Shown: positions 7,783 through 59,887 of the stretch, piece by piece
Layout: each line of letters opens with the position of its first letter
How positions within the stretch are numbered: position 1 is the stretch's first letter
Assembly: GCF_009653635.1 (NCBI RefSeq)
Contig: NZ_PPFD01000002.1
Span: 62,001-126,000, forward strand
DNA: 64,000 nt
From: Endozoicomonas sp. OPT23
Lineage (GTDB): Bacteria; Pseudomonadota; Gammaproteobacteria; Pseudomonadales; Endozoicomonadaceae
Direction of reading: 5' to 3'
Translations under genes and position numbers: made by a program
Notes under the pieces: generated by a model
Seen by the model: the letters and a program-made list of their open reading frames with translations, nothing else
What the model was told of the DNA's origin: nothing
Database searches by the model: none

Positions 7783-9882
7783 GTGAATCCGGTAACTAAA
7801 ACGTTCCAAATCGGTGACCAGACCGTAACTCTGGAAACAGGTCGTGTTGCCCGTCAGGCAACCGGTTCTGTACTGGCCACCATGGGCGATATCTCTGTAC
7901 TTGCTGCAGTAGTAGGCTCTAAAGAAGCAAGACCTGGACAGGATTTCTTTCCTCTGTCCGTTCACTATCAGGAAAAGACTTACGCAGCGGGCAAAATCCC
8001 GGGCGGCTTCCTGAAGCGTGAATCCCGTCCGAGCGAAAAAGAAACTCTGACTTCCCGTCTGATCGACCGTCCAATTCGTCCACTGTTTCCGAAAGGTTAC
8101 ATGAATGAAGTACAGGTAGTTTGTACGGTTATGTCTACCGACAAGCTGAACGATCCTGACATGGTAGCTATGCTGGCTACTTCTGCTGCGCTGGCGATCT
8201 CCGGTATTCCTTTCGACGGCCCTATTGGTTGTGCTCGTGTTGGTTTCAATGAAGAGCAGGGTTACATTCTGAACCCTACTTTTGAAGCACTGGCTACTTC
8301 CGAGCTGGACATGGTTGTAGCGGGTACCAAAGACGCTGTTCTGATGGTTGAATCCGAAGCTAAGGAACTGACTGAAGACGAAATGCTGGGTGCGGTTCTG
8401 TTCGCGCATCAGGAATACCAGACCGCAATCACTGCTATTGGTGAACTGGCTGCAGAAGTTGGCAAGCCTCGTTGGGACTGGGCTGCTGCGGAAGAGAATG
8501 TATCTCTGAAAGAAAAAATGTCTGCTTTTGAAGGTCGTATGCGTGAAGCTTACCAGATCATCATCAAGCAGGATCGTTACACTGCAGTTAACGCTCTGCG
8601 CAGTGACGTACTGGCTGCTCTGGCCGGTGACGACAGCGAATTTGCTACTTCTGATGTTGAAAAATCATTCAGCAAGCTGGAGAAGAACGTTGTTCGTGGC
8701 AACATCATCAATGGTATGCCTCGTATCGACGGTCGTGACACCAAGACGGTTCGTGACATCGCAGTAGAAGTTGATGTTCTGCAGAAGACTCACGGTTCCG
8801 CACTGTTCACCCGCGGTGAAACTCAGGCGATCGTTGCTGCCACTCTGGGTACTGCCCGTGACGCGCAAATCATCGATGCTCTGCAGGGCGAAAGCAAAGA
8901 CCCGTTCATGCTGCACTACAACTTCCCATCCTACTCTGTAGGCGAATGTGGTCGTATGGGTGCGCCAGGTCGTCGTGAAATCGGTCATGGTCGTCTGGCT
9001 CGTCGTGGTGTTGCTGCAGTTCTGCCAACTCAGGAAGAATTCCCGTACACCATCCGTGTTGTTTCCGAGATCACTGAATCCAACGGTTCCAGCTCCATGG
9101 CTTCCGTATGCGGTACTTCCCTGGCTCTGATGGACGCTGGTGTACCTCTGAAGGCACCAGTAGCCGGTATCGCTATGGGTCTGGTTAAGGAAGGCGAGAA
9201 GTTCGCTGTCCTGACCGACATTCTGGGTGACGAAGATCACCTGGGCGACATGGACTTTAAAGTAGCGGGTACTTCTGAAGGTATCACTGCTCTGCAGATG
9301 GACATCAAGATTTCCGGTATCACCGAAGAAATCATGGAAGTTGCACTTGAGCAGGCCATGGGTGCACGTATGCACATCCTGGGTGAGATGAACAAGGTTA
9401 TTGGTTACGCTCGTCCTGAGCTGAACCCTAACGCTCCATCCACCATGTCTCTGAAGATCGATACCGACAAGATCCGTGACGTTATCGGTAAGGGCGGTGC
9501 CACTATCCGTTCTATCTGTGAAGACACTGGCGCTTCTGTTGATATCGACGACAGCGGTAAAGTACAGATTTTTGCGGACAGCCGTGAAAACGCACAGGCT
9601 GCTTACGACCGCGTTATCGGCATCACTGCTGAAGCGGAAGTTGGCAAGCTGTACACCGGTAAGGTTACCCGTATCCTCGACTTCGGTGCTTTCGTTAGCG
9701 TTCTGCCAGGTAAGGATGGTCTGGTTCACATCTCTCAAATCGCCGATGAGCGTGTTGAGAATGTAACTGACTACCTGAAAGAAGGTCAGGAAGTTGAAGT
9801 TGTAGTTCTGGATATCGACAACCGTGGTCGTATCAAGCTGAGCATGAAAGAAGTTGAGCGCACTAAAGAGCAGCTGAGCTGA
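7783..9882 (+). CDS. pnp: polyribonucleotide nucleotidyltransferase
   Basis: Phosphorolytic 3'-5' exoribonuclease of the RNA degradosome; also adds 3' tails. The 699-residue product has two RNase PH domains (about 10-230 and 310-540), the second with FTRGETQAI and [14 protein letters not shown]-type catalytic blocks, then a KH domain ([15 protein letters not shown], about 565) and an S1 domain ([15 protein letters not shown], about 625). It starts with GTG; an AGGA sequence seven bases upstream supports that start and the N-terminus ([11 protein letters not shown]) aligns with family members. A strong terminator follows. Identification is certain. Confidence 0.98.
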
Positions 9883-9937
9883 TTGACTGAATGAATCAGT
9901 AAAATAGCTATGTTAAGTGGCTGATTATTAACAAATA

Positions 9938-9968
9938 TAAAACAGGAGCCTTATAGCTCCTGTTTTTC
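9938..9968 (+). terminator. intrinsic terminator after pnp
   Basis: AACAGGAGC (9941-9949) pairs with GCTCCTGTT (9956-9964), extended by A-T pairs, and is followed by TTTCTTTCT. It lies 56 bases after the pnp stop. Confidence 0.9.
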
Positions 9969-10142
9969 TTTCTAAACCCGCTTTTTAAATACGATTTTTT
10001 GTCACAAAGTGATAAAAACTTTCCTGCGTTCATGGCTGTGCGCCTTTTTTACAAGATACAATACCTGTCCAAAAACGAAAGCATACAGAGGTTAGCCTGA
10101 ATACGGGTTAGCTTTGAAGTGGTGCAGGATAGGATTACAGGA

Positions 10143-11564
10143 ATGACCGAGGCAGTTCACTGTCACTACCATCAGAGCAATGCGGCAATATGGCATTGTG
10201 AACCTTGTCAGAAACATTACGGCGACTGTTGTGTACCCAATGTGCCAGAAGGTTATGACGAGCCTGCATGCACCTTGTGTCATGAACAGCTGACCTACCT
10301 GGGTGCTGCTCATACGGCTGAACCTTTCTGGCAGATTATCAATAAATTTTTTACCTATCCGGTTCAGTTATCGAGCCTGTCTTTTTTATTCGTCAGCGTC
10401 GTTATTGGTCTTCTTGCTCCATACACTGGCCCGGCGGAGCCAATTCTATCGCTGATTATGATGGCGGTTTTGATTAAATACTCTCTGCAGATTATCGAGG
10501 CAGTGAGTTTCGGAAGCTGGGAACCGCCATCATTGGAAGATGCTTTTTCAGCGGATGCATTGAGCTTGTTCTTTAAGCAGATGGCTATCTTCTTTGTTGG
10601 TGGTGTAGCACTCTACTTTATCGGTTCGTTGGGTTGGATCGCTTTCTTCGCGGCGCTTTTCTTTATGCTGCTGGGGGTGCCTGCATCGACGATGATTCTG
10701 GCTCGAGAGCAATCGCTGTTCAGTGCTATTAACCCAATCAAAATTGCCTTTGTTATGGCGGCGATTGGCTGGCCTTATCTGTTGCTCTACTTCTTCCTTA
10801 TCGTTCTATCTGGTGGTCCAGCTTATTTTATCGGCTTCCAGCTGGAGCCTTCGCCAGCGACTGTAGCGGCATCTTCCTTCCTTGGAGGCTACTTCTCCTT
10901 TGTTATGTACGCCATGATGGGGTATTGCCTCTATCAGTATCAGGCGACACTGGGGTATACCGCAGAGATGGAAGAGTTTGGGGAGGTTTCCGAGGAAGAT
11001 TATCGTAAGAGCAAGGCTATGGCGGACAGTCTGATTCTGATGCGTGAAGGGCGTGAAGAGGAGGCTTTAAAAGCCGTCAAAGCGGCACTGACGAATGCTG
11101 CGACCGATCTTCAGTTGAATAAGCGCTTCTTTCAATTGTTGATGTTGACTGCTTCTGATGAGATTTTGCAGAAATTTGTCGGTAAATACACTCAGAGATT
11201 GCTGATCGTTCGTAAGGATCATGAGGCGGCGGATATCTATCTTGAAGTCCGTAAGCGACTGAAGGCTTATATGCCGGCAACAGCCAGTGATCGATTCAAG
11301 TTGGCAAAAGCGTTATCCGAAACCGGCAAGGCCAGAGAGTCTCTCAGACTTCTTTTTAATATGCACAAAACCTTTCCGGACTTTGCCGGTATCCCTGAGG
11401 CCTATCTGCTGGTTGCGAAAATGCTCAGTGAAAATATGAATAATGACGAGCAGGCAAGGGTATACCTTGATTATGTGATCAAAAAATACCCGGACAGCAG
11501 GAAAGCGGAAGAAGCAAAAGTCTTCCGGCATGTTATCGACAAGCTGGCTACTCAGACAGCGTAA
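10143..11564 (+). CDS. B-box-type zinc finger, polytopic membrane and TPR-like protein
   Basis: Residues 5-50 hold a Cys/His array (CHYHQ, HCEPCQKHYGDCC, ACTLCHEQL) typical of B-box-like zinc-binding domains. Residues about 65-285 contain five or six hydrophobic membrane segments in a DUF4013/YIP1-like arrangement. The C-terminal ~190 residues are cytoplasmic helical repeats resembling TPRs (SETGKARESLRLLFNMHKTFPDF, NNDEQARVYLDYVIKKYPDSRKAEEA). An in-frame GTG at 10119 exists, but AGGATAGGA sits before the ATG at 10143, which I use. The function is unknown. A rhomboid protease, also a membrane protein with a helical tail, is encoded convergently next to it. Confidence 0.85.
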   Translation: MTEAVHCHYHQSNAAIWHCEPCQKHYGDCCVPNVPEGYDEPACTLCHEQLTYLGAAHTAEPFWQIINKFFTYPVQLSSLSFLFVSVVIGLLAPYTGPAEPILSLIMMAVLIKYSLQIIEAVSFGSWEPPSLEDAFSADALSLFFKQMAIFFVGGVALYFIGSLGWIAFFAALFFMLLGVPASTMILAREQSLFSAINPIKIAFVMAAIGWPYLLLYFFLIVLSGGPAYFIGFQLEPSPATVAASSFLGGYFSFVMYAMMGYCLYQYQATLGYTAEMEEFGEVSEEDYRKSKAMADSLILMREGREEEALKAVKAALTNAATDLQLNKRFFQLLMLTASDEILQKFVGKYTQRLLIVRKDHEAADIYLEVRKRLKAYMPATASDRFKLAKALSETGKARESLRLLFNMHKTFPDFAGIPEAYLLVAKMLSENMNNDEQARVYLDYVIKKYPDSRKAEEAKVFRHVIDKLATQTA

Positions 11565-51172: not shown

Positions 51173-51700
51173 TCATCGACAAAAGGAGTTTTCAGGCTCG
51201 CTGGTGGTTTTGCCCGCCAGCAGTTTCGAACGCATGTTTGGCTGGCTGGTTTTTTCAGAAAGCCAGATAGCAAGAAATGACGAACCGAAATCCTTATCTT
51301 TAATAGAGCCTGCCAACTGATCATTAAAAAAGAACTGGCTGGTGTTCGAACAGTCAACATACAGTTCCAGTGAATCACCTTCTTTTATATCAGGCCATAT
51401 CTTCAGAAGCTGGCTAAGCCATTGCTCGGAGTCAGGGTGTGACAGACCTTGCTCAGCCCACTCCTCGCGGGTTCTGTTGACCAGGCCTTTAGCTGAGAAA
51501 TCTCTCAAATAGGTGATCTTTAGTTTCAAAGGGATACGGTTTGGAATGTAAAGGCCATCCGGTGTCAGAAGCTCAATATCATAAACAGACCAGAACAGAA
51601 CATTGAGGCGAGCTTTACCTACCTGCTTGAAACTGCTGGAAGCCAGAGCATTGGGAGCAGCGAACAAAAGAGATAATACAATCAGCGTACGAAGAATCAT
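51173..51700 (-). CDS. chalcone isomerase-like periplasmic protein
   Basis: 175 residues with a signal peptide (MILRTLIVLSLLFAAPNALA) and a chalcone isomerase-like fold: FKQVGKARLNVLFWSVYDIELLTPDG, LKITYLRDFSAKGLVNRTREEW, and YVDCSNTSQFFFNDQLAGSIKDKDFGSSFLAIWLS. Bacterial members bind fatty acids or unknown ligands; the plant enzymatic reaction is not implied. ATG 51700 overlaps the DUF2878 stop (ATGA) and has AGGAAG upstream. Last gene of the sigma-chrR operon. Confidence 0.85.
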   Translation of the reverse strand: MILRTLIVLSLLFAAPNALASSSFKQVGKARLNVLFWSVYDIELLTPDGLYIPNRIPLKLKITYLRDFSAKGLVNRTREEWAEQGLSHPDSEQWLSQLLKIWPDIKEGDSLELYVDCSNTSQFFFNDQLAGSIKDKDFGSSFLAIWLSEKTSQPNMRSKLLAGKTTSEPENSFCR

Positions 51701-52200
51701 GCAAACTTCCTGCTCAGCCAATGATTAATCTGAAAAAACAGCGGCATTAGCACAGCCCAGATAAAGGCAAGGACTGTGAGACTGAAGATAAGGCTGAAAC
51801 CAAACTCGACAGCGCCTAATTGAACCCCCGCAAAGTAACTGGAGGAACCACCAATAGCACCAAAAACGGCCGCCAGTTTGGGAGAGCCTGCAAGGAAGTT
51901 CAGGCTATGCCTTAACGTTGCAGCAAAGGCACACCAGAGCAGAAGCAGCCATTCAGGCAACCAGATAGAGTCCTTGAAAATAAAGAAGCCACTCCAGCTG
52001 AGTAGCTGATCTATTTCAATTCCAATGCTGGCAACAATCAGAATCAGTAAAAACTCAGTGGGATGTTTTCTGTGGATAAAACCATGAAGCAGAAGCAGGG
52101 CAGCGGTTAAAGGCAGAAAAGCAGTCTGCCCCCAGACGGCAGAAAGCCAGGTCAGGTAGAACCATACGCCGTTGAAAACCATTTCCCTGTTCAATGTCAT
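51697..52200 (-). CDS. DUF2878 membrane protein
   Basis: Polytopic membrane protein of about five helices (LTWLSAVWGQTAFLPLTAALLLLHGFIH, LLILIVASIGIEIDQLLSWSG, LSLIFSLTVLAFIWAVLMPLFF). The frame extends to 52317, but residues before MTLNREMVFNG derive from a palindromic repeat; the usual family length (~165) and a GGA upstream favour ATG 52200, giving 167 residues. It overlaps the downstream chalcone isomerase-like gene by four bases. Commonly found beside cfa/ChrR clusters. Function unknown. Confidence 0.85.
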   Translation of the reverse strand: MTLNREMVFNGVWFYLTWLSAVWGQTAFLPLTAALLLLHGFIHRKHPTEFLLILIVASIGIEIDQLLSWSGFFIFKDSIWLPEWLLLLWCAFAATLRHSLNFLAGSPKLAAVFGAIGGSSSYFAGVQLGAVEFGFSLIFSLTVLAFIWAVLMPLFFQINHWLSRKFA

Positions 52201-52252
52201 TCTAAAGTCCGACAGGCTCCTTGTGCAGAAAAGCCTTGATATACGTGCAGTT

Positions 52253-52278
52253 GTTATCCCCGCGTAAGCGGGGATAAC
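52253..52278. repeat. REP-like hairpin between chrR and the DUF2878 gene
   Basis: GTTATCCCCGC (52253-52263) pairs perfectly with GCGGGGATAAC (52268-52278) around GTAA. When translated it gives the VIPAYAGIT peptide commonly produced by such dispersed palindromes. It lies between the chrR stop and the proposed DUF2878 start and may modulate operon expression. Confidence 0.8.
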
Positions 52279-52316
52279 CTGCGTATTTTTTGTATGGCTT
52301 TCAGCGCTTAGCTGCA

Positions 52317-52973
52317 CTAGAGCCCGAAAAATGGTTGCAGCAATCTGGGTACCAAACCCTCGAATTTTAAAGGTGCATCAGTGGCAATCAGACAGATACA
52401 TGCTTCATGAGTATCGGCAACCGGCTGATGTTTTGTATCAGGGTCAAGGTCTTCCAGGTCTCCTGCCTGAAAGCGTCCACACTCGTCGGTGTAAGAGCCC
52501 TTCAGTACCAGCGTTAATTCGGTTCCTGAATGTCCGTGGGATGGCAGGCAGGTGCCGGGAGCAATCTTCAGGAGTTTGAGCTTGCCTTCTGCGGATGGCA
52601 AGGCAACCTGTTTCATTCCTGGAGCCAGTGTTTTCCATTCCAGCTGGTCAAACTCCGCGTGCCCCAGGAGCCGCTGAAGAGCAGAAGGTACTTCACCGTG
52701 CTTGGGAGGCTTTGGAATGGGAGCTGCTGAACTTTGATGAGGCTGAATGTTGAGCATTTGAAGAATATCGTCTCTGGCCCCTGTCGACATAGACACTGGT
52801 GAACATTCTTCAACCAGTGAACTGCCAAGGCTTTCCGCAGAGGCTCTTCTTTGTCGACAGTCAGAGCAGTGTTCCAGATGGCAGGAGATCACTAAGGACA
52901 TGGAATCACTGAGGCTGCCAGCGGCATAGCTCATTAAGGTGCTGATATCAGGGTGGTGATGAATAATAGTCAT
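52317..52973 (-). CDS. chrR: ChrR-family zinc-dependent anti-sigma factor
   Basis: Holds the cognate ECF sigma factor inactive until singlet oxygen or related stress. The N-terminal zinc anti-sigma domain shows H6/H7 and H32-x3-C36-x2-C39, the same spacing as the zinc ligands of Rhodobacter ChrR (His6, His31, Cys35, Cys38). The C-terminal cupin domain (residues ~110-215) has HGHSGTELTLVLKGSYTDE with His and Glu metal ligands. Overlaps the sigma gene by four bases. 218 residues is normal. Confidence 0.94.
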   Translation of the reverse strand: MTIIHHHPDISTLMSYAAGSLSDSMSLVISCHLEHCSDCRQRRASAESLGSSLVEECSPVSMSTGARDDILQMLNIQPHQSSAAPIPKPPKHGEVPSALQRLLGHAEFDQLEWKTLAPGMKQVALPSAEGKLKLLKIAPGTCLPSHGHSGTELTLVLKGSYTDECGRFQAGDLEDLDPDTKHQPVADTHEACICLIATDAPLKFEGLVPRLLQPFFGL

Positions 52974-53569
52974 TGGTTGCCTCCCAACTGCTTGCGGAGT
53001 TTCTCAAAGGCCAGTCTCAGTCCGGATTTAACACTGCCCAGTGGAATGGCCATTTCATCGGCAATTTCCCGGTGGGTTTTCCCTGAGAAATAGACCTGAT
53101 GAATCAACTGAGCCTGCTGGCAGGGCAGGTTTTTAATAAGCTGTTTCAATTTATGACTGTCAGTAAATTCTGTCTCAACGGGTTCGCTTATGTCTTCGTA
53201 GCAATCGAGGGAGGAGAGCCGATCAGGTTTGAACTTGCGAAGATGATCTATCCAGAGATTTCTGGCGATGGTAAATATCCAGGTGCTGGCTGTCGCTTTC
53301 TCAGGATCAAAACTGTCGCAACGACGCCAGACTGACAGCATAGCTTCCTGAACCAGTTCTTCAGCAAGAGAGCTTTCAGCCCCTCGCATAATGAGATAGC
53401 TTTTAAGTCTGGGGGCAAAAAAATCATAAATTACCAGAAACTGACTCCTGCTCCTGTATCGGGCAAGGTCCACAAGGTTACTGGCCATTTGCGCCGAGCT
53501 TTGCCCGGGGCTCTGTCCAGTGCCTGGCTCGAACTTTGTGTTATCTGTTTTTATGAGTGCGTCAGACAT
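52970..53569 (-). CDS. rpoE: ECF sigma factor (RpoE/ECF11 type)
   Basis: 199-residue extracytoplasmic function sigma factor. Region 2 (ESSLAEELVQEAMLSVWRRCDSFDPEKATASTWIFTIARNLWIDHLRK) and region 4 (YFSGKTHREIADEMAIPLGSVKSGLRLAFEKLR) match the ChrR-partnered group. Followed by chrR with a four-base overlap. The promoter on its 5' side has the TGATCC -35 type, so it probably activates its own operon. Gene symbol follows Rhodobacter usage and is not the E. coli envelope-stress RpoE. Confidence 0.93.
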   Translation of the reverse strand: MSDALIKTDNTKFEPGTGQSPGQSSAQMASNLVDLARYRSRSQFLVIYDFFAPRLKSYLIMRGAESSLAEELVQEAMLSVWRRCDSFDPEKATASTWIFTIARNLWIDHLRKFKPDRLSSLDCYEDISEPVETEFTDSHKLKQLIKNLPCQQAQLIHQVYFSGKTHREIADEMAIPLGSVKSGLRLAFEKLRKQLGGNQ

Positions 53570-53610
53570 TTCAGGTATGGGCTGTTGTCGTTTAAGAATG
53601 ACAATTGTCT

Positions 53611-53640
53611 TTCATACGATCTTACGTCCGAACCGGATCA
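53611..53640 (-). promoter_or_regulatory. candidate ECF11-type promoter for sigma-chrR operon
   Basis: On the minus strand TGATCC (53640-53635) is followed after 18 bases by TATGAA (53616-53611). The start codon of the sigma gene is 42 bases further. TGATCC with an 18-base spacer is the reported -35 pattern for Rhodobacter RpoE promoters. Confidence 0.7.
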
Positions 53641-53676
53641 CCTGACTATAAACTTTTTTGGCAAAGCACCTGCCCA

Positions 53677-53707
53677 TGATCCAAAAGTTCCCGATAGCCG
53701 TAGTAGA
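53677..53707 (+). promoter_or_regulatory. candidate ECF11-type promoter for the lipid-modification operon
   Basis: TGATCC (53677-53682), 18-base spacer, TAGTAGA (53701-53707), and the FAD oxidoreductase ATG at 53741. It faces away from the matching element at 53640-53611; the two -35 hexamers are 36 bases apart. Confidence 0.75.
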
Positions 53708-53740
53708 AGATAACGACTTTTCTGGAGCAGTTTCGACAAC

Positions 53741-55084
53741 ATGGAACAAGATAATAAAGACACGCCATTAAATATTGCGGTTATTGGCTCTGGAATATCA
53801 GGCTTATCCTGCGCCTGGCTGCTTTCCCACAAACACAAAGTCACTCTTTATGAAAAGGACGATCGGCTTGGTGGTCACAGCCATACCGTCAGAGTGAATC
53901 TGGATGGTAAAACCGTTGATGTTGATACCGGCTTTATCGTTTTTAATGAAAACACCTACCCCAATCTGAAAGCATTTTTTCGCAATCTGGGTGTTGATGA
54001 AGTTGCCACGGACATGTCGTTTGGTGTTTCCCTGAATCAGGGAGCGCTGGAATATTCCGGTTCCGATTTAAATGGCATTTTTGCTCAGCGCAAAAATCTT
54101 CTGAAGCCGTCTTACTGGCGAATGCTTCGGGACATTCTCCGCTTCTATAAAAAGAGCGAAGAGTGGTTGAAGACATTAACTCCAGAAATATCTCTCGGAC
54201 AACTGCTGAAGAAAGAAGGTTTCAGTAAAACTTTTATCAGAGACCACCTGCTGCCCATGGGTGCAGCTATCTGGTCTACCCCGGAAGATAAAATGCTGGA
54301 TTACCCGGCACTGGCTTATCTTCGCTTCTGCCAGAATCATGGCCTGCTGCAGGTTTCAGACAGACCCCGCTGGCTGACGGTTATGGGCGGGAGTCGAAAC
54401 TACGTTAATAAATTAGCCGATCTGCTGGGTAACAGTGTTCAGCTCAATCGTTGTGTAAAAGACGTTAAACGATACGACGACCATGTGTTGGTGGAAGATC
54501 TACAGGGTGATGTGCAATCGTTTGATCATGTAGTGATGGCTTCCCACGCAGACACCAGCCTGTCGTTGCTGGCAGAGCCTGATGAGCTGGAACAGCACCT
54601 GCTGGGTTCTTTCTCTTTTCAGCGCAATCGTGCCGTGCTGCACAGTGATGAATCGCTGATGCCGGAGAACAAAAGAGCTTGGGCCAGCTGGAACTATCTC
54701 GGCTCCGAGAGCGGTCAGGGACCATCGGTGACCTACTGGATGAACCGGCTGCAACATATCGACAGTCGATCCTTGTTTGTTACGTTGAATCCGGGGCAGG
54801 AACCGGCAGCAGAAAAAATTCACGGCTGTTATCTTTACGATCACCCGGTTTTTGATCAGGCGGCCATGTCCGCTCAAAAGCGACTCTGGGAGTTACAGGG
54901 AAGAAACAGAACCTGGTTTTGCGGTGCCTGGTTTGGTTACGGCTTTCATGAAGACGGGATTCAGTCCGGTCTGGCCGTAGCCGAAGCATTGGGCAATGTT
55001 CGTAGACCGTGGACGGTGGCCGGAGAAAGTGACAGACTGATTATTCCCGATACCGATAAGACAGCTGGGAGCATTCAGGGATGA
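53741..55084 (+). CDS. NAD(P)/FAD-dependent oxidoreductase (amine oxidase-like; UfaD-type candidate)
   Basis: 447 residues with an N-terminal dinucleotide-binding motif VIGSGISGLSCAWLLS and the second motif YEKDDRLGGHSHTVRV, then FNENTYPNLKAFFRNLGV typical of the amine-oxidase/desaturase-like flavoproteins found next to cfa. In Rhodobacter a homologous gene acts in furan fatty acid synthesis as a desaturase. First gene of the plus-strand operon and directly under a TGATCC promoter. Overlaps the DUF1365 gene by four bases. Reaction here is inferred from context, not shown. Confidence 0.88.
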   Translation: MEQDNKDTPLNIAVIGSGISGLSCAWLLSHKHKVTLYEKDDRLGGHSHTVRVNLDGKTVDVDTGFIVFNENTYPNLKAFFRNLGVDEVATDMSFGVSLNQGALEYSGSDLNGIFAQRKNLLKPSYWRMLRDILRFYKKSEEWLKTLTPEISLGQLLKKEGFSKTFIRDHLLPMGAAIWSTPEDKMLDYPALAYLRFCQNHGLLQVSDRPRWLTVMGGSRNYVNKLADLLGNSVQLNRCVKDVKRYDDHVLVEDLQGDVQSFDHVVMASHADTSLSLLAEPDELEQHLLGSFSFQRNRAVLHSDESLMPENKRAWASWNYLGSESGQGPSVTYWMNRLQHIDSRSLFVTLNPGQEPAAEKIHGCYLYDHPVFDQAAMSAQKRLWELQGRNRTWFCGAWFGYGFHEDGIQSGLAVAEALGNVRRPWTVAGESDRLIIPDTDKTAGSIQG

Positions 55085-55881
55085 ATTCAGTGCTGTTCAC
55101 AGGACGGCTGATGCATCACAGGTTTCAGCCCAGGGTACACCAATTTAGCTATCGTGTGGTTAGCTGGCTGTTTGATCTTGATGAGCTGGAACAGCTGAAT
55201 CAAAACTTCCGGCTGTTTTCCAGAAACCGATTCAACCTCTTTTCTTTTTTTGATCGTGATTACGGTGATGGTTCTGACTGTTCTCTAAAGCAGCGTGTGA
55301 ATCAATTGCTCGAAGAACATCAGTTAGAGACAGCAGAAAATATTCGATTGCTCTGTTACCCGAGGGTACTTGGTTATGTTTTTAACCCGCTCTCGGTTTA
55401 TTACTGTTTCTCTGCTGAAAAGCTGACGGCCATAGTTTATGAAGTGAGTAATACCTTTGGAGAGCGCCACAGTTATGTAATGGCGGTTTCTGAAAGCCCC
55501 GGTAATGAAAACATTGACCAGCTTGCAGATAAACAAATGCATGTTTCTCCTTTCTTTGAACGAGATTGCTTTTATCGTTTTGCAGCACCAAAACCGGCTG
55601 AATTACTGAAGCTGAGCATTGAGCTTTTTAAAGGCGAGCAGAAGCTTTTTATTGCGGCATTGAATGGCAAAAGAAAGTCCATTACCGATAAAGAGTTACT
55701 GACTGCCTTTGTCTCTATTCCGTTTCAGACAATAAAAGTCATGGTCACTATTCACTGGCAGGCGTTAAAACTGTGGCTCAAAGGTATTCCTTTAGTCAGG
55801 CATGAACCGCTGGAAAACAACCATTCATCCAGCAAGGGGAAACTTTCTCCTGAGGCAATAACGGCATCTATGGAGACGTAG
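55081..55881 (+). CDS. DUF1365 protein
   Basis: 266-residue DUF1365 member: LMHHRFQPRVHQFSYRVVSWLFDLDEL, NRFNLFSFFDRDYGDG, RLLCYPRVLGYVFNPLSVYYCFSAEKLTAIVYEVSNTFGERHSY and a C-terminal membrane-associated segment. The family is nearly always found between the FAD oxidoreductase and a cfa-like methyltransferase, suggesting a fatty-acid or lipid step, but no reaction is established. Translationally coupled to the gene before it; cfa starts two bases after its stop. Confidence 0.92.
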   Translation: MNSVLFTGRLMHHRFQPRVHQFSYRVVSWLFDLDELEQLNQNFRLFSRNRFNLFSFFDRDYGDGSDCSLKQRVNQLLEEHQLETAENIRLLCYPRVLGYVFNPLSVYYCFSAEKLTAIVYEVSNTFGERHSYVMAVSESPGNENIDQLADKQMHVSPFFERDCFYRFAAPKPAELLKLSIELFKGEQKLFIAALNGKRKSITDKELLTAFVSIPFQTIKVMVTIHWQALKLWLKGIPLVRHEPLENNHSSSKGKLSPEAITASMET

Positions 55882-55883
55882 TC

Positions 55884-57101
55884 ATGACAATCGGCAGCAG
55901 TCAGCAACTCGGTGACAGTCAGACGAACAAGGCAAGCCCTTATGGACTGACCTGGTTGTCGCGCAAACTCTATCGCTCCAATGTCAGTCAGATTCGATTA
56001 CTGTTGCCTGGCGGTGAAGCGCTCGCCATTGGTGTCCCTCACTATGAGCAGACAACACCGACTCTTGAGATTAAAAGCCCAGCCAGAGTCATTCGACATG
56101 CCCGGGGCGGCATTATTGGCTGGGCAGAGTCTTATATTGATGGTCACTGGCAAACACCGGATTTACGACAGCTGGTTTCGTGGGCCATGAGGAATGAAGA
56201 GGCGCTGGAAAAAGCCTTCAAGCCAAGCTGGTTCAGCCGTAAGCTGAATCGTCTGCTACACCGGCTGAACAATAACAGTAAGCGGGGAAGCAGACGGAAT
56301 ATTGCCGCCCATTATGATCTGGGTAACGATTTTTATCGTCATTGGCTGGACGACACCATGACTTATTCCAGCGCTATCTTCAGCACAGAAGAACAGAGTC
56401 TGGAAGATGCTCAGAACAACAAGAATCAAACTCTCCTGAATATGCTTGAGCTGGAGCCTGAACATTCGGTGCTGGAAGTAGGTTGTGGCTGGGGTGGCTT
56501 TTCCAGGGTCTTGAACGACGCGGGTCAGCACCCTTACCTTGGTGTGACCTTATCAAGGGAACAGCTGCAATACGCTAAAGATCATGCTCCTGCAGATGCT
56601 GATCAGCAGTTTAAGTTACTGGATTATCGAGATCTGAAAGGCAGCTATGACCGTATTGTTTCTATCGAGATGTTTGAAGCGGTGGGCGAGTCGCACTGGA
56701 ATAGCTATTTCAAAAAGATTCGTGACAGCCTAAAACCTGGTGGAGTCGCTGTGATTCAAGTGATCACCATCGAAGACGAACGCTTTGCTTCCTACCGTAA
56801 AAATGTCGACTTCATTCAGCGGTATATTTTTCCCGGCGGTATGCTGCCCAGTCACAGTGTTCTGCAGGAAAAGATTTTTCAGGCGGATTTGAAGTTGGAA
56901 AAGAGTATTGCCTTTGGGCCTGACTACGCACGAACACTTCAGCATTGGCATCAACGATTCAATCAGCGCTGGCAGGAAATAAATCAGGGTAAGTTTGATT
57001 CAGCCTTTCGCAACATGTGGAACTTCTACCTTGCCTACTGTGAGGCAGGATTTAACAGCGGCAGTACCGATGTCAGGCTTTATAAAATCAGAAGGTCATA
57101 A
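55884..57101 (+). CDS. cfa: cyclopropane-fatty-acyl-phospholipid synthase family methyltransferase
   Basis: SAM-dependent enzyme that adds a methylene or methyl group to unsaturated acyl chains in membrane phospholipids. 405 residues: N-terminal lipid-binding domain (residues 1-120), then NIAAHYDLGNDFYRHWLDDTMTYSSAIF, the SAM motif VLEVGCGWGGFSR, and IVSIEMFEAVGESHW and FIQRYIFPGGMLPS. Either true cyclopropane synthase or a UfaM-like methyltransferase of the furan fatty acid route; sequence reading alone does not decide. Its stop overlaps the next ATG by one base. Confidence 0.94.
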   Translation: MTIGSSQQLGDSQTNKASPYGLTWLSRKLYRSNVSQIRLLLPGGEALAIGVPHYEQTTPTLEIKSPARVIRHARGGIIGWAESYIDGHWQTPDLRQLVSWAMRNEEALEKAFKPSWFSRKLNRLLHRLNNNSKRGSRRNIAAHYDLGNDFYRHWLDDTMTYSSAIFSTEEQSLEDAQNNKNQTLLNMLELEPEHSVLEVGCGWGGFSRVLNDAGQHPYLGVTLSREQLQYAKDHAPADADQQFKLLDYRDLKGSYDRIVSIEMFEAVGESHWNSYFKKIRDSLKPGGVAVIQVITIEDERFASYRKNVDFIQRYIFPGGMLPSHSVLQEKIFQADLKLEKSIAFGPDYARTLQHWHQRFNQRWQEINQGKFDSAFRNMWNFYLAYCEAGFNSGSTDVRLYKIRRS

Positions 57102-57670
57102 TGAAAAAATTCTGCTTTTTTTTCTCAGCACTGCTTGCTCTGACCGTTCTTCCGGGATGCACGACTATGGATATTGAATACTATAAAAATGAAACACCTG
57201 AGCTAAAGGTTGAAGAGTACTTTCTGGGAGAAACCCTGGCCTGGGGTATGTTTCAGGATCGTTTTGGCAAGGTGAGAAACCGATTCAAAGTAGTGATGAG
57301 AGGCAGGGTTGAAAATGACACTCTGATTCTGGACGAACAGTTTGAATATTCTGACGGCACAACATCGGACCGACTTTGGAAACTGAAGATACTGCCTGAT
57401 GGCCACTATGAAGGCAGTGCCGGAGATGTTATCGGCAAAGCGATAGGGAAATGGGCCGGTAACAGTTTTAACTGGAAGTATGAAATGGATCTGGCCGTGA
57501 GTGGAAGCAACTGGCGAGTGTCGTTTGATGACTGGCTCTATCTGCAGGAAGACGGCACATTGATTAATATTGCTACGGTCAGCAAATGGGGCATCAAACT
57601 GGGAACTCTGACGTTTGTGTTCGCCAAGGAAAAAGGCATGGCTGAAGCGTTCAGAGGGCTTAAACAGTGA
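57101..57670 (+). CDS. DUF3833 lipoprotein
   Basis: 189 residues with a lipoprotein signal (lipobox LPGC, Cys20). The mature part matches DUF3833: YFLGETLAWGMFQDRFGKVRNRFKVVMRGRVENDTLILDEQFEYSDGTTSDRLWKL and NSFNWKYEMDLAV. The family clusters with cfa and DUF1365. Role unknown; possibly lipid binding in the periplasm. Starts within the cfa stop and overlaps the SDR gene by four bases. Confidence 0.92.
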   Translation: MKKFCFFFSALLALTVLPGCTTMDIEYYKNETPELKVEEYFLGETLAWGMFQDRFGKVRNRFKVVMRGRVENDTLILDEQFEYSDGTTSDRLWKLKILPDGHYEGSAGDVIGKAIGKWAGNSFNWKYEMDLAVSGSNWRVSFDDWLYLQEDGTLINIATVSKWGIKLGTLTFVFAKEKGMAEAFRGLKQ

Positions 57671-58443
57671 GTGCTGATAACGGCTCTGATAAACCAAAAA
57701 TCATATGGATTACCGGAGCCAGCCAGGGAATTGGTGAAGCCCTGGCACTGCTGACGGCAAGTCAGGGAATGACAGTGATTGCCAGTGCCCGAAGCCGGGA
57801 AAAGCTTGAGCAACTGAGTGCCAGAGCTGAAAACTTGAGCGGCGAAATAATTCCAAAACCTTTGGATATCCTTGATCGACTTTCTGTTGAAAATACGATT
57901 AAGAGTATTGTTGAGAATCATGGGGACATTGATCTGGCTGTTTTAAATGCTGGCACATTTATTCCTATGGATGGAAAAGAGTTCAGGGCTGATACAGTGA
58001 AGCAGCATCTGGATCTCAACGTGATGGGAACCAGTTATTGTCTTGAACCTTTGATTGAAATAATGAAAGGGCAGGGCAGCGGGCAGATCGCTATTAATGC
58101 ATCTCTGTCCGGTTATCGTGGTTTGCCAACTGCAGCAGCCTATGGTGCTAGCAAGGCTGCCTTGATTAACATGGCAGAATGCCTGCACCTGGAACTAAAG
58201 TCGTCAGGTGTAGATGTAAGACTTATTAACCCTGGCTTTGTTAAAACGCCTTTAACGGATAAAAATACATTTCATATGCCCTTTCTGGTGTCTTCTGAAC
58301 AAGCCGCAAAAAATATTTTGAAAGGACTTAATGGCAGTGGCTTTGAAATTCGTTTTCCGACAGCTTTCGCCGGCATCATGGGGTTATTGAGAGTTATGCC
58401 TTATCGCTTATATTTTTATCTGGCAGGAAAACAGCTTAATTAA
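57667..58443 (+). CDS. short-chain dehydrogenase/reductase
   Basis: 258-residue SDR with NAD(P) motif WITGASQGIGEALALL, the VLNAGT segment, active-site Ser in INASLSGYRG and YGASK. Starts with GTG, overlapping the DUF3833 stop (GTGA). Likely the last gene of the plus-strand lipid operon. Substrate unknown; a membrane-lipid-derived alcohol or ketone is inferred from context. Confidence 0.92.
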   Translation: MSADNGSDKPKIIWITGASQGIGEALALLTASQGMTVIASARSREKLEQLSARAENLSGEIIPKPLDILDRLSVENTIKSIVENHGDIDLAVLNAGTFIPMDGKEFRADTVKQHLDLNVMGTSYCLEPLIEIMKGQGSGQIAINASLSGYRGLPTAAAYGASKAALINMAECLHLELKSSGVDVRLINPGFVKTPLTDKNTFHMPFLVSSEQAAKNILKGLNGSGFEIRFPTAFAGIMGLLRVMPYRLYFYLAGKQLN

Positions 58444-58537
58444 TCAGTAACCCCTTATCAGAAGCGCTCCTTAAAACTTGCTAAATCCTGATTCTGGTCT
58501 GCAATAAGGCTTGGATTAGAATCAGGAGTGTATGCAT

Positions 58538-59887
58538 ATGCTGGGATTTCTCAGTCCTCCTGCTCATCAGGAGCAGATAGCGGAACAAGATGTTGATGAA
58601 ACCTATAAAAAACTTCGCTTTCAGGTACTACTGGGAATAATCATTGGTTATGCCGCTTATTACCTGATTCGCAAAAACTTTTCTCTGGCTATGCCAAACC
58701 TGATTGAACAGGGATTTACCAAGTCCGAGCTTGGCTTTGCTCTATCAGCGGTCTCTTTTGCCTATGGCTTCAGTAAGTTTTTAATGGGTAACCTGTCTGA
58801 TCGCAGTGATGCACGGAAGTTTATGAGCATTGGACTTATTCTTTCTGCACTCACCATGATTTTTATGGGCATCGCGCCGTTTGCGACGGCTTCTGTAACT
58901 GCCATGTTTGGACTTCTGTTTTTGAATGGCTGGTTCCAGGGCATGGGGTATCCAGCGGGTAGCCGAGTGATGACCCACTGGTTCTCGGTTCGGGAGCGTG
59001 GTGTCAAATGGGCTTACTGGAACACCTCCCACAACCTCGGTGCGGGTCTTGTAGGACCAATGGCTATCTTCGCCATTTACCTGTTTCATGACTGGCATTC
59101 CCAGCTCTGGTTTCATGGTGTTGTGGCGTTGGTTTTTGCAGGGTTTACCTGGATGCTGTTAAGGGACACGCCGCAGTCCTGTGGTTTGCCCAGTATTGAA
59201 GAGTGGACTGGAGAACGACTTAAATCTTATGATGCCAGTCATGAGCAGGAGATGACCGCCAAGGAGATCTTCTTCAAATACGTCTTTAACAATAAGCTGC
59301 TTTGGTACCTCTCACTAGCTAATGTCTTTGTCTATCTGGTGCGTTATGGCGTGCTGGACTGGGCACCCACCTATCTGTCAGAAGTAAAAGGCTTCTCAAT
59401 GGCCCAGAGTGGCTGGGCCTACTTCCTTTATGAGTTTGCTGGCATTCCGGGCATTCTGCTTTGTGGTTGGGCATCTGATCGTTTCTTCAAAGGCTGCAGA
59501 GCACCTGTCAGTATTTGCATGATGGTGATGGTGTCTATTGCCATCGTGATCTATTGGCAGAACCCTGCTGGTAACCCTCTTATAGATAATCTCTGCCTGA
59601 TCATTGTTGGTTTCTTCATCTATGGTCCTGTTGTGCTTGTAGGGCTGCAGGCTGCTGATTCAGCACCCAAAAAAGCCACAGGTACGGCAACAGGTCTGAC
59701 AGGGTTGTTTGGCTACCTGGGTGGTGCACTCTTTGCCAACCTTGCCATGGGCGTTATTGTGGACGTGATGGGTTGGAGTGGTGGATTCATCCTGATACTG
59801 GTTGCCTGCTTCATGGCCATTCTGTTTCTGACCATGACTATGAAGAGAGAGCGTGAAGATAAGGCCGGGCTCTTCGGACAGGGTTAA
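58538..59887 (+). CDS. glpT: glycerol-3-phosphate transporter GlpT
   Basis: Inner-membrane MFS antiporter that imports glycerol-3-phosphate in exchange for phosphate. The 449-residue protein follows E. coli GlpT closely: GYAAYYLIRKNFSLAMPNLIEQGF, NGWFQGMGYPAGSRVMTHWFS, LLRDTPQSCGLPSIEEW, WAYFLYEFAGIPGILLCGWASDR, TGLTGLFGYLGGAL. Twelve membrane segments. ATG 58538 has AGGAG nine bases upstream and gives the family N-terminus; an ATG two codons earlier is too close. Followed by a strong terminator. 94 bases separate it from the lipid operon, so it is probably independent. Confidence 0.95.
   Translation: MLGFLSPPAHQEQIAEQDVDETYKKLRFQVLLGIIIGYAAYYLIRKNFSLAMPNLIEQGFTKSELGFALSAVSFAYGFSKFLMGNLSDRSDARKFMSIGLILSALTMIFMGIAPFATASVTAMFGLLFLNGWFQGMGYPAGSRVMTHWFSVRERGVKWAYWNTSHNLGAGLVGPMAIFAIYLFHDWHSQLWFHGVVALVFAGFTWMLLRDTPQSCGLPSIEEWTGERLKSYDASHEQEMTAKEIFFKYVFNNKLLWYLSLANVFVYLVRYGVLDWAPTYLSEVKGFSMAQSGWAYFLYEFAGIPGILLCGWASDRFFKGCRAPVSICMMVMVSIAIVIYWQNPAGNPLIDNLCLIIVGFFIYGPVVLVGLQAADSAPKKATGTATGLTGLFGYLGGALFANLAMGVIVDVMGWSGGFILILVACFMAILFLTMTMKREREDKAGLFGQG

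What the first reader, a model, noticed from the sequence alone, without database searches (positions are those of the whole stretch)
51173..58443. ECF sigma/ChrR-controlled divergent operons for membrane-lipid modification
Seen: nine genes in two tightly coupled divergent operons (sigma-chrR-DUF2878-chalcone isomerase-like; FAD oxidoreductase-DUF1365-cfa-DUF3833-SDR), most with 1-4 base overlaps. Known: ChrR/RpoE pairs respond to singlet oxygen in Rhodobacter, and cfa-like plus FAD genes there make furan fatty acids; light-responsive clusters of similar content occur in Pseudomonas. Inference: this is a photo-oxidative membrane remodelling module in which DUF1365, DUF2878, DUF3833 and the chalcone isomerase-like protein have undescribed roles. 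No photolyase or MerR/LitR gene accompanies it here.
Basis: partly seen in the sequence, partly recalled or inferred. Interest (0 to 1): 0.7.

Follow-up and report, generated by a model that had tools for sequence, protein, structure and literature searches.

The report
Furan fatty acid stress-response gene cluster
A group of nine neighbouring bacterial genes very probably switches on under singlet-oxygen or similar oxidative stress and rebuilds membrane fats into protective furan-containing fats; this system is already known from Rhodobacter and other bacteria, and only the helper genes still lack a known job.

Summary
The nine genes and two divergent operons are real. The sigma/anti-sigma pair is of the RpoE-ChrR (ECF11) type. 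New to the finding: both operons start with an ECF11-type promoter (TGATCC-N16-CGTA) in the same 171-bp gap; the other 17 strict matches in the genome lie inside ORFs longer than 400 nt. The FAD, DUF1365 and Cfa-like proteins are homologues of UfaD, UfaO and UfaM, which make furan fatty acids in Rhodobacter (PMC7380195). The Cfa-like protein joins Rhodobacterales UfaM in a 99% supported set, apart from ordinary Cfa (quick tree). The layout is nearly that of Cereibacter: sigma-chrR facing ufaD-ufaO-...-DUF3833-SDR; 62 of 80 ChrR loci of Rhodobacterales type show it, 59 with both promoters. So it is a new member of a known kind. DUF1365 is not undescribed: it is UfaO. Deleting the Rhodobacter counterparts of DUF3833 and the SDR left fatty acids unchanged. 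Also new: DUF3833 is predicted to be a lipocalin-like barrel; DUF2878 and the MFS_2 transporter never share a region (0 of 99); DUF2878 starts at 52200, leaving a 116-bp gap with a hairpin after chrR.

The parts
53615..53640 (-). ECF11-type promoter of the sigma-chrR operon, TGATCC-N16-CGTA(TG)
   Evidence: genome-wide pattern search and position; the 28-base element ends 43 bases before the sigma ATG
53677..53702 (+). ECF11-type promoter of the ufaD operon, TGATCC-N16-CGTA(GT)
   Evidence: the 28-base element ends 36 bases before the ufaD ATG; nearly the same bases stand before the same gene in G277
52970..53569 (-). ECF11-type sigma factor (RpoE/sigma-E of the ChrR pair)
   Evidence: Pfam sigma70 r2 and r4; 39% identity to the C. 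johrii sigma
52317..52973 (-). ChrR anti-sigma factor with zinc anti-sigma domain and cupin domain
   Evidence: TIGR02451 over cut-off; PDB 2z2s E 7e-46, eight zinc ligands aligned by eye
52253..52278 (.). perfect 11-bp inverted repeat with 4-base loop between chrR and DUF2878; its core occurs at one other place in the genome
51697..52200 (-). DUF2878 membrane protein (corrected start 52200)
   Evidence: PF11086 1.4e-36; start from the G277 orthologue, four to five hydrophobic stretches
51173..51700 (-). chalcone-isomerase-like protein (Chalcone_3) with a signal-peptide-like N terminus, probably periplasmic
   Evidence: PF16036 3.6e-10; start and signal-like stretch read by eye
53741..55084 (+). 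UfaD homologue, FAD-dependent fatty acyl desaturase
   Evidence: 43% identity over 413 aa to C. johrii UfaD; synteny
55081..55881 (+). UfaO homologue (DUF1365), needed for the furan ring
   Evidence: PF07103 2.3e-83; 39% identity to C. johrii UfaO; the only DUF1365 match of the genome
55884..57101 (+). UfaM homologue (Cfa-like SAM methylase)
   Evidence: 45% identity to C. johrii UfaM, 34% to E. coli Cfa; 99% supported set with UfaM; the only strong CMAS match of the genome, 269 bits, next 46
57101..57670 (+). DUF3833 protein, counterpart of RSP1088; lipobox-like LPGC, predicted lipocalin-like barrel
   Evidence: PF12915 7.3e-63; model pLDDT 91 and Foldseek; lipobox by eye
57667..58443 (+). 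short-chain dehydrogenase, counterpart of RSP1087
   Evidence: PF00106 3.3e-43; 34% identity to the C. johrii protein in the same position

Best explanation
This is a compact oxidative-stress module of the RpoE-ChrR (ECF11) type coupled to furan fatty acid synthesis. In unstressed cells ChrR holds the sigma factor. Singlet oxygen or lipid peroxides lead to loss of ChrR; the freed sigma factor starts both divergent operons from the two TGATCC-N16-CGTA promoters, so it raises its own level and the synthesis genes together. UfaM methylates cis-vaccenoyl chains of phospholipids with SAM, UfaD desaturates the product to a conjugated methyl diene, and UfaO adds oxygen from O2 to close the furan ring. 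Furan chains scavenge singlet oxygen, and in Rhodobacter they are needed for ChrR turnover. Shown here: gene identities, promoters, homology, conserved layout. Inferred from Rhodobacter: the three reactions, singlet oxygen as signal, ChrR turnover. Inferred without direct test: DUF3833 (lipocalin-like lipoprotein), the periplasmic chalcone-isomerase-like protein, the membrane protein DUF2878 and the SDR handle furan lipids or their oxidation products and do not make them.
For: Families. Eight zinc ligands of ChrR (by eye; list from PMC6852236). Two ECF11-type promoters in the 171-bp gap; 19 strict sites in the genome against 3 for the reversed control, the other 17 inside ORFs longer than 400 nt. 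Divergent layout in 62 of 80 ChrR loci of Rhodobacterales type, 59 of 62 with both promoters; in 12 of 24 fetched regions of the window's own family, all 12 with at least one and 6 with both promoters. UfaM set at 99% SH-aLRT. Gln in place of His266: window, 3 of 3 Rhodobacterales UfaM, 54 of 55 cluster proteins; His in 14 of 14 canonical Cfa and in E. coli Cfa. ChrR and DUF1365 both present in 23 and both absent in 8 of 36 family genomes (Fisher p 1.3e-4). Published chemistry: PMC7380195.
Against: No lipid or expression data for this organism. The reference Ufa proteins used are those of C. johrii and two relatives, assigned by synteny (UfaD, UfaO) or as the single match in the genome (UfaM); the R. 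sphaeroides 2.4.1 proteins themselves were not compared. Q266/S139 does not exclude cyclopropane synthesis: cotton GhCPS1 has Q and S there (PMC3132707). Five of 36 family genomes break the ChrR/DUF1365 link: DUF1365 alone in G277, G290, G294, G297, ChrR alone in G305. In 12 of 24 family regions sigma-chrR is not directly beside ufaD, and among 59 other same-class regions only 5 are divergent, 3 of those with both promoters and 2 with none. Kinship confounds the Fisher test. The careful tree did not finish.
Confidence: 0.85

Rival explanations
1. The Cfa-like enzyme makes ordinary cyclopropane chains and the cluster is a cyclopropane-based stress response; the FAD and DUF1365 proteins act on other substrates.
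For: Cfa fold and SAM site by homology; cotton cyclopropane synthase GhCPS1 carries the same Q/S changes (PMC3132707); the genome has no other strong CMAS protein.
Against: Set with UfaM and away from canonical Cfa; linkage to UfaO and UfaD (Cfa-like gene in 56, FAD gene in 58 of 59 regions fetched for UfaO); 14 of 30 sampled same-class genomes with DUF1365 carry a separate canonical Cfa.
Confidence: 0.08
2. The regulator answers mainly to organic hydroperoxides, peroxide or other redox stress, not to singlet oxygen, in this host.
For: In Shewanella rpoE2-chrR is induced by hydrogen peroxide and the rpoE2 mutant is sensitive to it and to paraquat (PMC4336711); ChrR also responds to organic hydroperoxide (PMC6852236).
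Against: Intact cupin zinc site, whose Glu147 and His177 are needed for the response in Rhodobacter, and coupling to furan fatty acids, which singlet oxygen destroys (PMC6852236).
Confidence: 0.2
3. DUF2878 and the chalcone-isomerase-like gene are not part of the sigma-chrR operon but a separate unit that happens to lie downstream.
For: 116-bp gap with a perfect hairpin before DUF2878; of 24 fetched family regions 2 have DUF2878 and 1 the chalcone-isomerase-like gene; DUF2878 also occurs away from ufa genes: 4 of 19 DUF2878-centred regions have none of the three, and so has the genome's second copy (L280).
Against: Both families recur in ufa regions (22 and 21 of 59); 13 of 19 DUF2878-centred regions have all three ufa genes; in G277 the pair faces ufaD directly. 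No run of T follows the hairpin, so it does not look like a standard terminator.
Confidence: 0.3

Closest known systems
Rhodobacter (Cereibacter) sphaeroides rpoE-chrR / RSP1091-1087 operon plus ufaM (RSP2144)
   Same: Divergent sigma-chrR and ufaD-ufaO-...-DUF3833-SDR with an ECF11-type promoter on both sides; read here in the close relative C. johrii
   Different: An MFS_2 transporter (RSP1089 by position) stands where the window has ufaM; ufaM is elsewhere; no DUF2878 or chalcone-isomerase-like match in the C. johrii stretch
Shewanella RpoE2-ChrR regulon (SO_1986-1985; SO_3386-3374)
   Same: ChrR pair and a cluster with a cfa gene under TGATCC-N16-CGTA promoters (PMC4336711, passages)
   Different: There the cluster lies apart from sigma-chrR and includes the photolyase gene phrB; here sigma-chrR and the cluster are one divergent unit
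Vibrio cholerae ChrR/MerR blue-light regulon
   Same: ChrR-sigmaE control and light-induced cfa-like VC1122 (PMC5241685, passages)
   Different: chrR (VC2301) and VC1122 are far apart by number; the printed consensus TGATC-N18-CGTAT has a spacing one base longer than here
Pseudomonas mendocina LitR (PmlR1) light cluster with ufaM
   Same: FAD protein, SDR and UfaM together; ufaM induced by light (PMC9758184, passages)
   Different: LitR and photolyase in the cluster there; ECF11-type promoters here
Halomonas sp. YLGW01 ufaM, ufaD, ufaO
   Same: Three consecutive ufa genes, as here (PMC12089945, one passage)
   Different: Regulation not described in the passage seen

Membership tests
ECF11 sigma / ChrR pair | sigma regions 2 and 4 with an adjacent ChrR gene | tested here: met
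   4-base overlap of the two genes
ECF11 sigma / ChrR pair | zinc ligands of the anti-sigma domain and of the cupin domain | tested here: met
   all eight aligned with PDB 2z2s, read by eye (ligand list in PMC6852236)
ECF11 sigma / ChrR pair | TGATC-type -35 and CGTA-type -10 before its own operon and before target genes | tested here: met
ECF11 sigma / ChrR pair | activation by singlet oxygen | not testable with these tools
   needs cultures
UfaM | grouping apart from canonical cyclopropane synthases | tested here: met
   99% SH-aLRT set of 31 rows with 3 Rhodobacterales UfaM (quick tree)
UfaM | methyl product, not cyclopropane | not testable with these tools
   Q266/S139 shared with UfaM but also with cotton GhCPS1
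UfaD | flavin amine-oxidase-type protein homologous and syntenic to RSP1091 | tested here: met
   43% identity over 413 aa to the C. johrii protein; adjacent to ufaO
UfaD | desaturase activity on methylated chains | not testable with these tools
   needs enzyme assay
UfaO | DUF1365 protein beside ufaD | tested here: met
UfaO | residues or fold that would show how O2 is activated | tested here: inconclusive
   His12, Arg14, Tyr132, Lys151, Tyr165 in 177 of 177 sequences, Glu121 in 172, His130 below 95%; no Foldseek match with E at or below 0.001
LitR-controlled light cluster | photolyase beside the ufa genes | tested here: not met
   the only photolyase family match of the genome is on contig C25
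LitR-controlled light cluster | LitR/MerR gene beside the ufa genes | not tested
   two flanking genes on each side are a solute-binding protein, a protein without Pfam match, an MFS_1 transporter and a TPP enzyme; LitR was not searched for elsewhere

The most novel reading that the evidence does not exclude
The furan fatty acid module has a second, undescribed arm that handles oxidised furan lipids: a lipocalin-like lipoprotein (DUF3833), a periplasmic chalcone-isomerase-fold protein, an SDR that reduces the diketone formed when a furan is oxidised (chemistry recalled), and one membrane protein that is either DUF2878 or the MFS_2 transporter, two unrelated proteins filling one place. This would explain why RSP1087, RSP1088 and RSP1089 are dispensable for synthesis and why DUF2878 and MFS_2 exclude each other.
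Probability: 0.15. Interest if true: 0.6.

Novelty: new member of a known kind. Interest (0 to 1): 0.3.

Why it matters
It carries the Rhodobacter furan fatty acid response, with regulator, both promoters and all three synthesis genes, as one compact unit; in Rhodobacter ufaM lies elsewhere. Such a unit could be tested in a laboratory host in one piece. The work also separates the genes already explained (UfaM, UfaD, UfaO) from those that still need a function (DUF3833, DUF2878, the chalcone-isomerase-like protein, the SDR) and gives these a testable place in the pathway.

Tried and rejected
A wider regulon in this genome: one more strict site looked promising (G000:C25:168189, before a 2-thiouracil-desulfurase/DUF1722 gene), but it lies inside the photolyase reading frame and its bases encode the peptide FDPKGSFIRKW; a similar site lies inside the photolyase gene of L162. 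It is read as a coding coincidence. Weaker promoter variants were not searched genome-wide.

UfaO as a two-His-one-carboxylate iron enzyme: His12 is invariant and Glu121 is in 172 of 177, but His130 falls below 95%, so this was dropped. The UfaO model (mean pLDDT 79.6) gave no Foldseek match with E at or below 0.001.

Q266 as proof of methylase chemistry: rejected because cotton GhCPS1 has the same residues. Two Cfa-type proteins outside the clusters (L216, L218) that group beside the UfaM set keep His266.

DUF2878 as a plain replacement of MFS_2: the exclusion (37, 17 and both 0 of 99 regions) largely follows two enzyme groups (DUF2878 21 of 28 and MFS_2 0 of 28 in one; 0 of 27 and 17 of 27 in the other), and most fetched regions of the window's own family have neither (DUF2878 2, MFS_2 0 of 24). 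It is kept only as part of the novel case. The MFS_1 gene after the window's SDR is not of the RSP1089 type (no hit to that profile).

Searches that led nowhere: TehB family in the own genome (used only to learn where the window lies); a REP-like pattern in the window (0 matches); sequence search of the PDB with DUF3833, DUF1365 and chalcone-isomerase-like queries (no credible match); plasmid search with UfaD (143 records, best identity 56%, Azospirillum), which did not settle the organism.

Counts were made on part of what was found. Of 77 other same-class genomes with DUF1365, 59 regions were fetched (the sixtieth, L150, is the window genome's own photolyase region and was left out). Of 26 other family genomes with DUF1365, 24 regions were fetched, and 16 regions from the order; several are cut by contig ends. 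Of 74 genomes with DUF2878, 19 regions were fetched. Canonical Cfa was sought in 30 genomes. The ChrR scan kept 80 of 142 loci. Gene presence was set at over 90 bits or over 70. Cfa ORFs under 250 aa or under 300 bits, such as the broken pair of L169, were left out of the residue table and tree, and 14 rows that repeated cluster loci were dropped before the tree.


Full report
Observation. Five of seven junctions inside the two operons overlap by 1 to 4 bases. One junction was misread: DUF2878 probably does not overlap chrR. Its orthologue in the same-genus genome G277 begins at window residue 40 (76% identity over 165 aa), so the gene starts at ATG 52200, and the 116 bp between it and chrR hold a perfect 11-bp hairpin whose core occurs at one other place in the genome. 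No run of T follows it. I take the class to be Gammaproteobacteria, which no call shows.

Regulation. The 171-bp gap between the two operons holds two divergent ECF11-type promoters: on the minus strand TGATCC-N16-CGTATG ending 43 bases before the sigma ATG, on the plus strand TGATCC-N16-CGTAGT ending 36 bases before the FAD gene. This is the element printed for Shewanella RpoE2, for example TGATCC-N16-CGTATT before rpoE2 (PMC4336711, passages); the V. cholerae paper prints TGATC-N18-CGTAT, one base longer (PMC5241685, passages). TGATCC-N16/17-CGTA occurs 19 times in the 4.94-Mb genome against 3 for the reversed pattern, and 17 of the 19 lie inside ORFs longer than 400 nt. At 19 per genome about 0.0007 would be expected in 171 bp; two were found. 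ChrR aligns to the Rhodobacter sphaeroides structure 2z2s with E 7e-46 and keeps all eight zinc ligands (read by eye; list in PMC6852236, passages).

Enzymes. Furan fatty acid synthesis in R. sphaeroides needs UfaM (RSP2144, SAM methylase), UfaD (RSP1091, FAD-type desaturase) and UfaO (RSP1090, a DUF1365 protein) (PMC7380195, passages and section 4). A scan with the R. sphaeroides ChrR sequence kept 80 of 142 loci, nearly all labelled Rhodobacterales or Rhodobacteraceae genera. In Cereibacter johrii the order is SDR, DUF3833, MFS_2 transporter, UfaO, UfaD, then divergently sigma and ChrR; the lengths of the SDR (245 aa) and DUF3833 protein (186 aa) equal those given for RSP1087 and RSP1088. 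UfaM was taken as the single match to the window's Cfa-like protein in each of three such genomes. Window proteins share with the C. johrii ones 43% (UfaD), 39% (UfaO), 45% (UfaM), 30% (DUF3833), 34% (SDR), 39% (sigma) and 42% (ChrR) identity; the Cfa-like protein shares 34% with E. coli Cfa. In a tree of 93 sequences the window protein sits in a 99% supported set of 31 rows (28 cluster rows with the window, 3 Rhodobacterales UfaM); the canonical Cfa proteins lie outside (quick tree, the careful search did not finish). At the bicarbonate site, His266 of E. coli Cfa is kept in 14 of 14 canonical proteins and replaced by Gln in the window, in 3 of 3 Rhodobacterales UfaM and in 54 of 55 cluster proteins. 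This marks the group but does not prove the chemistry, because cotton GhCPS1 has Gln and Ser at the same places (PMC3132707, passages).

Distribution. Among the 80 ChrR loci, 75 also hold the sigma gene and UfaD, 62 in the divergent layout, and 59 of these 62 have both promoters; 54 have DUF3833, 65 an SDR, 47 MFS_2, 14 a Cfa-like gene, 8 the chalcone-isomerase-like gene, none DUF2878. Among 59 same-class regions fetched for DUF1365: UfaD 58, UfaM type 56, SDR 30, DUF3833 24, DUF2878 22, chalcone-isomerase-like 21, MFS_2 17, photolyase 15, sigma 9, ChrR 8; 5 are divergent like the window, 3 of them with both promoters and 2 with none. In 36 genomes of the window's own family, ChrR and DUF1365 are both present in 23, both absent in 8, ChrR alone in 1 and DUF1365 alone in 4 (Fisher p 1.3e-4, not corrected for kinship). 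Of 24 fetched family regions all have ufaD, ufaO and the UfaM type, 23 DUF3833, 22 the SDR, 14 the sigma-ChrR pair within the stretch, 2 DUF2878 and 1 the chalcone-isomerase-like gene; 12 of 24 are directly divergent, all 12 with at least one promoter and 6 with both. So the core operon is usual in the family, the divergent sigma-chrR neighbour is found in half of the fetched regions, and the DUF2878-chalcone-isomerase pair is an addition shared with G277. G277 keeps that pair and the ufaD promoter but has no ChrR over the cut-off.

Helper genes. A model of DUF3833 (mean pLDDT 91) is a ten-stranded barrel. Twelve Foldseek matches have E at or below 0.001: three chains of BFA1, nitrobindin, the CpeS lyase, the OssO spirocyclase and six chains of designed barrels; query TM-scores are 0.39 to 0.60, so the fold class is supported but no close relative is. 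Retinoic acid binding proteins and other lipocalin-like barrels follow with weaker E-values. The window protein starts with a lipoprotein-like LPGC motif, and the chalcone-isomerase-like protein with a signal-peptide-like stretch (both by eye, rules recalled). DUF2878 has four to five hydrophobic stretches. In 99 regions with UfaO, DUF2878 occurs in 37, MFS_2 in 17 and both in none, but this mostly follows two enzyme groups. Of 19 DUF2878-centred regions, 13 hold all three ufa genes and 4 none of them. [quoted passage not shown] A role after synthesis, in handling furan lipids or their oxidation products, is therefore the most likely one, but it is inference.

Literature. The search for DUF2878 gave 2 papers, that for DUF3833 gave 3, of which one passage was seen and two only as listings, and a search joining 'chalcone isomerase-like' with ChrR or furan terms gave 13 papers, 10 listed, none of these with that phrase. 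In Vibrio cholerae the DUF2878 gene VC1123, by its number next to the cfa-like VC1122, was deleted and porin genes ompU and ompT changed (PMC12971978, passages). In Aeromonas salmonicida genes of such a cluster fall with added riboflavin (PMC10012899, passages). ufaM is light-induced in Pseudomonas mendocina (PMC9758184, passages), ufaM, ufaD and ufaO are consecutive in a Halomonas (PMC12089945, one passage), and Arabidopsis has a UfaM-UfaD-like protein and a UfaO-like protein on lipid droplets (PMC10940516, passages). In these searches I saw no molecular function for DUF3833 or DUF2878.

Verdict. A new member of a known kind: the ECF11 sigma-ChrR regulon with furan fatty acid synthesis, in a compact form.

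Noticed in passing
L240 (G277:C79) 8387-11098: In G277, the nearer of two same-genus genomes compared, the sigma-chrR pair is absent between ufaD and DUF2878 and no ChrR over the cut-off was found in the genome, yet the ufaD promoter is conserved nearly base for base.
   Followed up: partly
58532-59887: An MFS_1 transporter lies 88 bp after the SDR; a close homologue lies 35 bp after the SDR in G277 and none was found in the other fetched regions searched. It is not of the RSP1089 type.
   Followed up: yes
L150 6853-9401 (G000:C25): The genome's photolyase is followed by a 2-thiouracil-desulfurase/DUF1722 protein (RudS-like; name from the abstract listing of PMC11417400), apart from the ufa cluster.
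   Followed up: partly
L280 6958-7629 (G000:C23): A second, distant DUF2878 protein (29% identity over 123 aa) overlaps the 3' end of a gene that looks by eye like a GntR/MocR-type regulator.
   Followed up: no
L135, L139, L140, L146, L151 and other same-class loci: A second Cfa-like methyltransferase with His266 but Phe at position 268 lies near DUF2878 in several clusters; 16 such proteins form a 100% supported group of their own.
   Followed up: no
52253-52278: Hairpin GTTATCCCCGC-N4-GCGGGGATAAC between chrR and DUF2878; its core occurs at one other place in the genome (G000:C25:229794).
   Followed up: partly
53741-55084: On named plasmids the window's UfaD is most like proteins of Azospirillum and rhizobia (up to 56% identity), more than the C. 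johrii UfaD (43%); horizontal transfer was not tested.
   Followed up: no
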